From Candidatus Dadabacteria bacterium (GTDB lineage: Bacteria; Desulfobacterota_D; UBA1144; Nemesobacterales; Nemesobacteraceae), in contig RKRQ01000089.1 in assembly GCA_007571325.1 (NCBI GenBank), forward strand, positions 1-51,349: 51,349 nucleotides of DNA, in the 5' to 3' direction. Of the stretch, positions 48,072 through 51,349 are shown in pieces (the stretch's first letter is position 1; the number at the start of each line of letters is the position of its first letter). A model generated the notes under the pieces. It saw only the letters and a program-made list of their open reading frames with translations. It was not told where the DNA came from and searched no databases. The translations under genes were made by a program, and so were the position numbers.

Positions 48072-48103
48072 ATTATGAGAAAGTTTAGGAAAAGGAGGAA
48101 AAA

Positions 48104-51100
48104 ATGGGATTATCTCTCTATTCCACTATGTACTACTTGTATTGTAGGCTAAACTACCTTACAGGCATTGTCTTAGCCGGTTTTATTTTAACTTTCCTTA
48201 TATATAACCATAGCACCTTTGCCACTCCGGTTCAAAACAACGAGTGTGGCTCCCTGCCATCTGCCAGCGGCACCATCACCTGCGACACCTCCACATACAG
48301 CACGTCGGGCGACGGGGGCATCTGGTACGATATAACTGCTTCCAGCACTTCTAACAAAAATTTCACGTTCGACTTAGATGATGAAATCGATATCAAATTC
48401 GTCACTGAGTACGATTCTGTTAACGGTTGGACTAAAATTCTCGACTCAGTTATGGAGAACGACCTTCACGGAAGTAAGTGCGATGACCCTTATGATTTCG
48501 GTGAATGTGAGGATGCCGCTGCTGTCAGGATTTTGAGGAATACTTATGTCGGGGACATAACCATCAATTCGTCTGCAAATATCGATGCAAGAACCAAGGA
48601 TGACTTCCATATTTTTGAGGACGAGGAGATGGGTATATATGTCAGGCAAAGGACTAAAGCCGACCTGACCCTGAACGCAACGGGCGGGACCATTATGTCT
48701 AGTGGGGAAGGTATATACTTAAGCCATACGGGTGCAAGCGGCGATATAAATCTAAACCTGTCCGGCGTCACAATCATTGCAGGTGATCGAGGCAATAATG
48801 ATGATGACAGCACTCCAGAACCGGTATCTAGTATAACACAAGGCGTTTTTGCGCAGATGGAACCCAGTACTACAGGTGATTTAACAATCACTATGTCTGG
48901 AGGAAGCATCAAAAATCTCTATGGACATGGCATCTTGGCAAATCAGGAAGGGAGAGGAACTTTAGACATAACGATATCGGGTACAGCGAAAATAGAGTCA
49001 GTGGATGCTTCCGGGGTCTCGGGGCTCCTTAGTTACAATAGTAGCAGTGGCTTTAGTAGCAGTGGCTTGAAAATTAATATGTTGGGAGGAAAAATCCATG
49101 TCGAGGGAAACCGAACTGGATCTGAAGGTAGAGCCCATGGTATCCATGCCCGGAAGAGTACTTCCAACACGGTGAATGGCGACTTCAATATAAAAATGTC
49201 CTGGGGAGAAATCGTGACAGAGAAAAAGCTCGCCCACGGTATTTTTGCAGATCAGATATGGACAGGGGACATCAATATCGATATGTCGGGGTATATCCAG
49301 ACGAAAAAATCAGAAGCTCTCGGCATCCACGGAAACCACACCGGAACCGGCGATATCACTATCAATCTGAAGGATGACGGATACATACGGACTGAAGGGT
49401 CAGAAGCCTACGGTATCTATGCAAACCACACCGGAACCGGTGATGTCGCCATCAATTTGAAGGACACCGACGATACCGAGACCAGTAAAATACAGACGGA
49501 GGGAAACGATTCCTACGGTATCTATGCAAACCACACCGGAGATGATGATATCACCATTGATGTATTCGGCGTTTTAATCCGGACGGGCGTAACCAAACAA
49601 GACGGGACGGTGACCGGAGACTCCGCCCACGGCATCTATGGAAAACACACAGGCGGTGGCGACCTGACTATCAGCCTGCGCGGCGAAGGAAAAATCCAGA
49701 CGATCGGAGACTCCGCCCACGGCATCTATGGCTACCGAACCGGAGCCGGTAGCGGTAAAATCAACATTGACATGTTTGTCGAGAGCGCCAATACCGGAGA
49801 CTGCAGCAGTAATAATACCGCAGACTGCGACATTCTGACCAAAGGTAACGACTCTCACGGTATTTATGGCTACCGAACCGGAAACGGCAACATTGACATC
49901 GATATCGATATGACCGGCGGAGACATTCTGACCGAAGGTACAGAATCCCACGGCATTTATGGCCGCCAATTCACCGGAAGCGGCAATATCGACATCGATA
50001 TGACCGGCGGCAGCATTCTGACCGAAGAGGTACGCTCCTACGGCATCTATGGAAACCATACAGGATCCGCTGCCAATTCTTCCGATAATGTAATCGATAT
50101 AAAGATGGCCGGCGGAGGTATTTTGACCAAGGGCGACTACGCCACCGGCATCAGGGGAATCAGCTCTACCGCAACCGGCGATGTCTCGATCGAACTTATG
50201 GGAGATGGCTCCATCCACACCCAAGGGGACTACGCCGAGGGCATCTATGGAAACTACACCGGAAACGGTGATCTCACGATCAGCCTGCGCGGTGGTAAAG
50301 GAGAAATCCAGACAACGGGAGACTCCGCCCACGGTATCTATGGAAATCACACCGGAAACGGTGATCTCACGATCAACTTCAACGGCTCCATTGAGACGTT
50401 AGGGGCGGGCGCTCATGGTATTCTCGCAAATCACAGTGGAACCACAGCCGATATATCCATTCACATGTCTGGCGGCAATGTCGTTACCCATGCCAGTGAC
50501 GCCTACCCGATCCATTTCATGTCCTCAAGCGCCAACAAAACCCTGACACTTAGCAACACCCTTATTGAACACGACATCGCAGACGGCAGTTTCGGAACTG
50601 CAATCAGCTTTTCGGGCAACAGCGACGACTTGTTGAGGGTCGAGGGTGGGGGTAAAACCACGATCCGTGGAGATGTGAATTTCTCTGAAGGAAATGACAG
50701 CCTCGTATTCTACACAGACCCAAACCAGGGAACCGTGGAGTTTGCCCATGAAGGCGGCATGATGATCGACCTTGAGCATATCTCCAAGATTGGTTCGGGA
50801 GTGGCGAGGCTACACTCTCTAAGCGTAGAGAGCGGGATTATGTCGCTTGAGAACGGCGATCTGCGTTTGAACGGCCATCTTGATCTCGGTGCAGACGGAG
50901 TTTTGATGATTCACGACCCGTCTCGGTTGATTTTTGAGTCAGGTGAAGAGCCGGATGACTACGGGCGTATAACGGCCAGTAAAGTAAGCTTCATGAGTCA
51001 GAACTCCAGGTTATATCTAAGTGAAGGAGCAAATCCTGCGCTTGACGAAAAGGACGTACTGCTGGTGAACTCGGAAGAACAAGAAGTCAAAGGAGGACAT

Positions 51101-51349
51101 TTCAGCACAGAACCCCCGGGTTCCGATCCAAACCCTGACGTGGAGCCTGTGCTATATGACGAGAACGATATGGAGATAGGTCTTGTCACGAACGACGGAA
51201 TCATTTGTTTAGCTGGCACTCCTAACAATTCTCCATGTCCATTAATTATCGAACCGCCGGACGACAAGGAACCGCCGGACGACAAGGAACCGCCGGACGA
51301 CAAGGAACCGCCGGACGACAAGGAACCGCCGGACGACAAGGAACCGCCG
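48104..51349 (+). CDS. secreted repeat-rich beta-solenoid protein (autotransporter/adhesin-like), truncated by the window end
   Basis: Manually translated open frame of 1082 codons with no stop; RBS AAAGGAGG; hydrophobic signal-like N-terminus (YLTGIVLAGFILTFLIYNHSTFA); about 20 repeats like AHGIYGNHTGNGDLTIxLxGxIxTxG; C-terminal EPPDDK array. Missed by the ORF track because no stop lies within the window. Confidence 0.88.
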   Translation, partial: MGLSLYSTMYYLYCRLNYLTGIVLAGFILTFLIYNHSTFATPVQNNECGSLPSASGTITCDTSTYSTSGDGGIWYDITASSTSNKNFTFDLDDEIDIKFVTEYDSVNGWTKILDSVMENDLHGSKCDDPYDFGECEDAAAVRILRNTYVGDITINSSANIDARTKDDFHIFEDEEMGIYVRQRTKADLTLNATGGTIMSSGEGIYLSHTGASGDINLNLSGVTIIAGDRGNNDDDSTPEPVSSITQGVFAQMEPSTTGDLTITMSGGSIKNLYGHGILANQEGRGTLDITISGTAKIESVDASGVSGLLSYNSSSGFSSSGLKINMLGGKIHVEGNRTGSEGRAHGIHARKSTSNTVNGDFNIKMSWGEIVTEKKLAHGIFADQIWTGDINIDMSGYIQTKKSEALGIHGNHTGTGDITINLKDDGYIRTEGSEAYGIYANHTGTGDVAINLKDTDDTETSKIQTEGNDSYGIYANHTGDDDITIDVFGVLIRTGVTKQDGTVTGDSAHGIYGKHTGGGDLTISLRGEGKIQTIGDSAHGIYGYRTGAGSGKINIDMFVESANTGDCSSNNTADCDILTKGNDSHGIYGYRTGNGNIDIDIDMTGGDILTEGTESHGIYGRQFTGSGNIDIDMTGGSILTEEVRSYGIYGNHTGSAANSSDNVIDIKMAGGGILTKGDYATGIRGISSTATGDVSIELMGDGSIHTQGDYAEGIYGNYTGNGDLTISLRGGKGEIQTTGDSAHGIYGNHTGNGDLTINFNGSIETLGAGAHGILANHSGTTADISIHMSGGNVVTHASDAYPIHFMSSSANKTLTLSNTLIEHDIADGSFGTAISFSGNSDDLLRVEGGGKTTIRGDVNFSEGNDSLVFYTDPNQGTVEFAHEGGMMIDLEHISKIGSGVARLHSLSVESGIMSLENGDLRLNGHLDLGADGVLMIHDPSRLIFESGEEPDDYGRITASKVSFMSQNSRLYLSEGANPALDEKDVLLVNSEEQEVKGGHFSTEPPGSDPNPDVEPVLYDENDMEIGLVTNDGIICLAGTPNNSPCPLIIEPPDDKEPPDDKEPPDDKEPPDDKEPPDDKEPP
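51251..51349 (+). repeat. perfect 18-bp tandem repeat (gaaccgccggacgacaag), 5.5 copies, encoding (EPPDDK)n, continues beyond the window
   Basis: Direct reading; in frame with the ORF starting at 48104. Confidence 0.98.

What the first reader, a model, noticed from the sequence alone, without database searches (positions are those of the whole stretch)
48104..51349. Unlisted giant ORF: secreted beta-solenoid repeat protein with a 'GIYGNHTGxGDxTI' repeat
The supplied track shows only antisense fragments here, but frame +2 from ATG 48104 is open for all 1082 codons to the window edge. It has a strong RBS, a signal-like N-terminus, about 20 degenerate repeats of roughly 28-46 aa (anchor A[HY]GI[YHF][GA]NHTG-xGDxTIxLxGGxIxTxG), then a non-repeat segment (RLHSLSVESGIMSLENGDLRLNGHLDLGADG) like autotransporter passenger C-termini, then a charged Pro-rich linker. 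Alternating short beta-strands with G/T turns suggest a right-handed beta-helix. This is the strongest candidate here for an undescribed surface protein.
Basis: partly seen in the sequence, partly recalled or inferred. Interest (0 to 1): 0.78.

Follow-up and report, generated by a model that had tools for sequence, protein, structure and literature searches.

The report
Repeat-built autotransporter of a probable sponge symbiont
This is a real gene for a large bacterial surface fibre that probably pushes itself through the outer membrane; its relatives sit mainly in bacteria living in marine sponges, and sister genes in the same genome carry the same kind of fibre on a completely different anchor.

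Summary
Frame +2 from ATG 48104 is open to the window edge (1082 codons), with AGGAGG upstream, a signal-like leader and 19 repeats of 28-46 aa. The window ends because the assembly breaks inside an 18-bp tandem repeat (EPPDDK)n. Contig C67 of the same genome shares that exact 99-bp end and continues the frame into about 290 aa with 12 amphipathic strands and a terminal FRF beta-signal. The gene is therefore very probably a classical-type autotransporter. Its own barrel matches no HMM and could not be folded here. AlphaFold gives an all-beta solenoid for the window's passenger (pTM 0.77, repeat core pLDDT 85-94), nearest to the Vag8 passenger. Same-genus genomes and Proteobacteria MAGs, mostly from sponges, carry complete relatives with the same type of passenger plus mostly PF03797-recognised barrels. 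The notable extra is anchoring. At least ten other tails in this genome end not in a barrel but in GGC-x-hydrophobic helix-basic tail (MYXO-CTERM-like), and passenger paralogs with such tails share the window gene's repeats and cap. The genome encodes a myxosortase-like CPBP protease. Best function: surface adhesin or stalk (inferred). A new variant of a known kind.

The parts
48093..48098 (+). Shine-Dalgarno AGGAGG, 5 bases before the ATG
   Evidence: sequence printed
48104..51349 (+). 5' part (1082 codons) of an autotransporter gene, cut by the contig end; continues on contig C67 (L005:14357-15394 minus)
48104..48223 (+). signal-peptide-like leader, residues 1-40, possible cleavage after STFA
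   Evidence: hydropathy maximum at residues 19-33; SignalP not available
48245..48283 (+). conserved Cys pair (C48-x11-C60) just after the leader, a probable disulphide cap
   Evidence: invariant in alignment A3; C-x(10-13)-C seen in most sponge relatives
48701..50626 (+). 19 beta-solenoid repeats of 28-46 aa, anchor GI[YH][GA]NHTG-xGDxTI, residues about 200-841
50627..51193 (+). non-repeat passenger cap (ISKIGSGVARL..ENGDLRLNGHLDLG..SRLIFES..YGRITAS), shared with paralogs that carry a different anchor; possible autochaperone
51251..51349 (+). (EPPDDK)n 18-bp tandem repeat linker; exact 99-bp overlap with the end of contig C67

Best explanation
The gene encodes a classical-type (type Va) autotransporter. 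Step 1 (inferred from the leader): Sec exports it to the periplasm. Step 2 (inferred from the barrel-like C-terminus and its beta-signal): BAM inserts the C-terminal barrel into the outer membrane, and the passenger is drawn through and folds from its C-terminal cap as a beta-solenoid. Step 3 (solenoid predicted by AlphaFold; display inferred): some 19 repeats form a long rod held on the barrel by a charged EPPDDK spacer, with an N-terminal disulphide cap. No catalytic motif was seen, so I commit to an adhesin or stalk that holds the cell to its host matrix or neighbours. Relatives are found mostly in sponge-derived genomes, so the likely partner is sponge tissue or the sponge microbiome. Several paralogs carry a related passenger on a GGC-type C-terminal tail, presumably processed by a myxosortase-like protease. 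Architecture: about 0.88. Adhesin role: about 0.5.
For: The C55 right end and C67 right end share an exact 99-bp overlap. The unrelated pairs C55 left/C32 left and C81 left/C16 right also share exactly 99 bp, so 99 bp looks like the assembler's graph overlap. No other contig holds that repeat. The C67 continuation has 12 amphipathic strand peaks (z 2.4 against shuffles; known barrels 2.3-4.1; non-barrel controls -1.9 to 0.2) and ends M-x-M-x-I-x-F-x-F. AlphaFold of window residues 180-1000: all beta, pTM 0.77; nearest fold Vag8, Foldseek probability 0.97, then Fap2 and PfbA, with EspP and pertactin further down. Same-genus L033 is a complete 1009-aa relative with PF03797 at 6e-20. Sponge-MAG relatives L035 and L038, and L040 (origin not confirmed), have PF03797 at 6e-18 or better. 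L035 folds as solenoid, linker, helix and barrel, with Foldseek 9e-12 to EspP and TM up to 0.76 to NalP.
Against: The C67 barrel hits no Pfam or NCBIfam barrel model, no relative in 58 class genomes and no profile match to the relatives' barrels. Its strand z-score is at the low end of the known barrels, and the window's solenoid passenger scores about the same (2.3), so that measure shows beta-richness rather than a barrel specifically. The contig join is inferred from the shared 99 bp, not seen in reads. The best Foldseek E-value for the window model is only 0.08. No functional evidence for adhesion.
Confidence: 0.85

Rival explanations
1. The passenger's true C-terminus is a GGC-type (MYXO-CTERM-like) tail as in its paralogs, and the C67 barrel belongs to another gene that happens to share the EPPDDK repeat.
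For: At least ten GGC-type tails occur in this genome, most at contig ends. Passenger paralogs C18 and C41 carry such tails, and C41 is 49% identical to the window protein over residues 908-1035. The C67 barrel is unlike all known relatives.
Against: The EPPDDK DNA repeat exists on only these two contigs, both ending in it with the assembler's 99-bp overlap. Tail paralogs use other linkers (PPGDGD, DPDPDP). Same-genus L033 and L067 put this kind of passenger on a barrel.
Confidence: 0.08
2. A secreted or surface enzyme (for example a polysaccharide lyase-type beta-helix) rather than an adhesin or stalk.
For: Pectate lyases, alginate lyases, epimerases and tailspikes appear among the weak fold neighbours.
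Against: No hit to any enzyme family above cut-off. The top fold neighbours are binding or adhesin passengers (Vag8, Fap2, PfbA). The repeats are alike along the rod, which suits a scaffold rather than one active site.
Confidence: 0.1
3. A decaying or non-expressed repeat gene maintained by recombination among paralogs.
For: Some relatives are broken: G008:C19 has an in-frame stop and its passenger and barrel lie in separate open frames. The family is patchy, 4 of 58 class genomes.
Against: The window frame is intact over 1082 codons with a strong ribosome-binding site, an intact leader and an intact continuation.
Confidence: 0.05

Closest known systems
Classical type Va autotransporters with beta-helix passengers (Vag8, pertactin, EspP) and their barrels (EspP, NalP, AIDA-I)
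   Same: Leader, beta-helix-like passenger with C-terminal cap, linker, barrel-like C-terminus ending in Phe. Foldseek puts the window passenger nearest Vag8; relative L035's barrel is EspP/NalP/AIDA-I-like.
   Different: No passenger family model hits. Long EPPDDK array before the barrel. The barrel itself is below detection by PF03797 and TIGR01414.
Autotransporters of sponge-derived Rhodospirillales and Gammaproteobacteria MAGs (RHO3_bin_80, COS4_bin_31, CO36386bin_20, Ca. Porisulfidus TsSOB)
   Same: Cys pair after the leader, GI-x-[AG]-x-H-x-G-x-GDI-x-I repeats, Pro-rich linker in most, barrel.
   Different: 25-31% identity to the window passenger. A different cap (VFLAGGGRVVIG..WIINDGGGTTI) and a PF03797-type barrel (not recognised by the HMM in L037 and L042).
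MYXO-CTERM / myxosortase sorting (Myxococcus TraA-MrtX, PMC11980579)
   Same: Paralog tails have an invariant Cys in GGC, a hydrophobic helix and a basic end. The genome has one CPBP protease with EExxxR and HxxxN whose best NCBIfam hits are myxosortases.
   Different: Not the window gene itself. Tails score 9-17 bits against a cut-off of 20; the protease scores 71 against 100 for Mrt_core. The genome's class has a small set of held genomes and was not shown to be Myxococcota.
GDSL-esterase autotransporter (EstA/EstP type) on C17 of the same genome
   Same: Another autotransporter in the same cell.
   Different: Enzymatic passenger and a clear PF03797 barrel at 9e-35.

Membership tests
Type Va (classical) autotransporter | N-terminal Sec signal peptide | tested here: inconclusive
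   Hydrophobic leader at residues 19-33 with an A-type site at 40; no SignalP.
Type Va (classical) autotransporter | beta-helix or other extracellular passenger | tested here: met
   AlphaFold all-beta solenoid, pTM 0.77; nearest neighbour Vag8.
Type Va (classical) autotransporter | C-terminal ~12-strand barrel ending in an aromatic residue | tested here: inconclusive
   12 amphipathic peaks and a terminal F on contig C67, but no structure could be run and the join is inferred.
Pfam PF03797 / TIGR01414 autotransporter barrel | HMM score above cut-off | tested here: not met
   C67: no hit. PF03797 is met in relatives L033, L031, L035, L038 and L040.
Repeat-passenger family of sponge-derived autotransporters | Shared repeats, Cys pair and architecture | tested here: met
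   Cys pair C48/C60 invariant across window, paralogs and same-genus relatives and present in most sponge relatives; alignment A7 at 25-31%; the window protein alone finds same-genus G008 at 3e-26.
MYXO-CTERM (paralog tails only) | TIGR03901 above cut-off 20 | tested here: not met
   14.5 and 9.3 bits for C18 and C16, 16.7 for a G008 protein; tripartite layout with invariant Cys present.
Myxosortase (own-genome CPBP protease C62) | NCBIfam Mrt_core above cut-off 100 | tested here: not met
   71.3 bits; myxosortase models are nevertheless its best hits, and EExxxR and HxxxN are present.

The most novel reading that the evidence does not exclude
One passenger family in a genus not shown to be myxobacterial is deployed on two unrelated outer-membrane anchors: a type V barrel (window gene, L033, L067) and a myxosortase-type GGC C-terminal tail (at least ten tails in this genome, plus L032). 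The passenger cap is homologous across the switch, and the family has moved among sponge symbionts of different phyla.
Probability: 0.55. Interest if true: 0.62.

Novelty: new variant of a known kind. Interest (0 to 1): 0.52.

Why it matters
If right, it offers a test case for how one surface-fibre module is switched between two export and anchoring routes, self-transport through a barrel versus C-terminal sorting. It also points to a repeat family shared by sponge-associated bacteria of different lineages that sponge-symbiosis studies based on eukaryote-like repeat Pfams would miss, because no Pfam model covers it.

Tried and rejected
A first genome-contig scan with the window/paralog cap found nothing; the cap of same-genus relatives (A6) worked. 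Profile comparison of the C67 barrel with relatives found no match; PDB and plasmid searches of it found nothing useful. Pfam DUF5077, PA-IIL and GldM hits are below cut-off and taken as chance. NCBIfam SslE and ClfB hits to C16 fall on its DP repeat. The taxon could not be named: an early guess of Alphaproteobacteria was dropped because only 58 genomes are held for the class. Paper searches on sponge symbionts gave no description of this family.

Full report
OBSERVATION. The window is G000:C55:1-51349, one contig of a 1.31-Mb, 105-contig genome. Frame +2 from ATG 48104 is open for 1082 codons to the last base. Simulated sequence of the same dinucleotide make-up never gave a stop-free run above 274 codons. 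AGGAGG lies 5 bases before the ATG, and residues 19-33 are the most hydrophobic stretch of the protein. Nineteen repeat anchors are spaced 28-46 aa; a strict core pattern occurs 13 times against 0.08 expected.

WHERE IT GOES NEXT. The last 99 bases are a perfect 18-bp tandem repeat, (EPPDDK)n. Contig C67 ends in the same 99 bases and no other contig holds them. The window's left end shares exactly 99 bases with C32, and C81 shares exactly 99 with C16, so 99 bp appears to be the assembler's overlap and C55-C67 an adjacency. The repeat unit is 18 bp, so any copy number keeps the frame. C67 continues with a 345-aa open frame that ends after about 290 aa of beta-rich sequence in ..NLMQMRIEFRF. It shows 12 amphipathic strand peaks, z 2.4; recognised barrels score 2.3-4.1 and non-barrel controls -1.9 to 0.2, though the solenoid passenger itself scores 2.3. 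No barrel HMM matches it, no relative exists in the 58 genomes held for its class, and profile comparison with relatives fails. I therefore call it barrel-like rather than a PF03797 member.

STRUCTURE. AlphaFold of residues 180-1000 with sponge relatives gives an all-strand model, pTM 0.77, repeat blocks mostly pLDDT 85-94, with the cap and linker mostly below 65. Foldseek's best PDB match is the Vag8 passenger (probability 0.97, E 0.08, TM 0.52 by target), followed by Fap2 and PfbA, with IgA1 protease, EspP and pertactin among lyases and phage tail proteins further down. From what I know of these families the leading bacterial hits are right-handed parallel beta-helices; no match reaches E 0.001.

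RELATIVES. In the same genus, G009 holds a complete 1009-aa protein (L033) with the repeats, a Pro-Thr linker and PF03797 at 6e-20. G010 holds a 1031-aa open frame with weaker, similar repeats and a barrel. G008 holds a broken barrel version and an intact 908-aa version with a GGC tail. A passenger profile finds only these genomes: 4 of 58 in the class, all one genus. A scan of named genomes returned ten loci, all Proteobacteria MAGs. RHO, COS, APA and CO names fit the sponge species of PMC8163846 (the matching of prefixes is my inference), and the TsSOB record names a sponge in its title. The origins of SB0662 and jk18x1b were not confirmed. Several carry PF03797, and L035 folds as solenoid, linker, helix and EspP/NalP-like barrel. 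A Cys pair directly after the leader is shared by window, paralogs and most sponge relatives, which argues for common descent rather than convergent repeats. Patchiness within the class plus presence in other lineages suggests horizontal transfer; no tree was built.

TWO ANCHORS. Paralogs C18 and C41 carry the same cap as the window protein (38% and 49% identity over the matched stretches) but end in GGCSIGGGD..GLLLFLxGLILFLxTxRKTxKKLK. The GGC is invariant in five tails. At least ten such tails, some cut before the GGC by the contig end, occur in this genome, many at contig ends, and weaker candidates in every member of the taxonomic family. G008 shows the same switch, with a cap homologous between the barrel and the tail protein. 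The layout is that of MYXO-CTERM, but scores stay below the cut-off. The genome has one CPBP protease over the Pfam cut-off (C62), whose best NCBIfam hits are myxosortase MrtP and Mrt_core at 2e-20 and 6e-20, below their strict cut-offs, with EExxxR and HxxxN present. It is found in 13 of the 14 genus members and 35 of 58 class genomes. In Myxococcus the cysteine is proposed to be lipidated and the helix is cut by MrtX (PMC11980579); that this happens here is inference.

MECHANISM AND FUNCTION. Shown: the gene, its repeats, a predicted solenoid, a beta-rich C-terminus with a beta-signal on the adjacent contig, and complete relatives with barrels. Inferred: Sec export, BAM insertion, C-to-N passage and display. 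The adhesin or stalk role is a guess from fold neighbours, repeat regularity and host association.

TAXON. A class with few held genomes, some near 1 Mb, and sponge relatives would fit Dadabacteria (PMC8115339 describes ~1.2-Mb pelagic Dadabacteria and a clade that includes marine sponges), but this is untested.

Noticed in passing
G000:C62:2017-2619 minus (L034:1480-2082): Single-copy myxosortase-like CPBP protease found in 35 of 58 class genomes, absent from the ~1-Mb family f8.
   Followed up: partly
G000: C12, C16, C18, C41 (two), C81, C84, C53, C95, C69: At least ten GGC-type hydrophobic-basic C-terminal tails, mostly at contig ends; this gene family may cause part of the assembly's fragmentation.
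   Followed up: partly
L031:2147-3160 plus: Spondin_N domain protein with a GGC tail next to the broken autotransporter in G008.
   Followed up: no
L113:2-1480 (G000:C88): Metalloprotease-like 493-aa frame ending in a GGCMLAGEY hydrophobic tail: a candidate further client of the sorting protease.
   Followed up: no
G000:C17 (L020:4348-6264 minus): GDSL-esterase autotransporter with a clear PF03797 barrel; barrel hits of similar strength occur in nearly all genus members.
   Followed up: no
L015, L016, L017 N-termini: Tail paralogs have a long Arg-rich N-terminal extension (ISTWxxRSRxRLxSPExRL) before the hydrophobic leader, reminiscent of extended signal peptides; the window gene lacks it.
   Followed up: no
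window 48104-51349: G+C of the gene is 49.8% against 43.6% for the window, compatible with transfer or with repeat composition.
   Followed up: no
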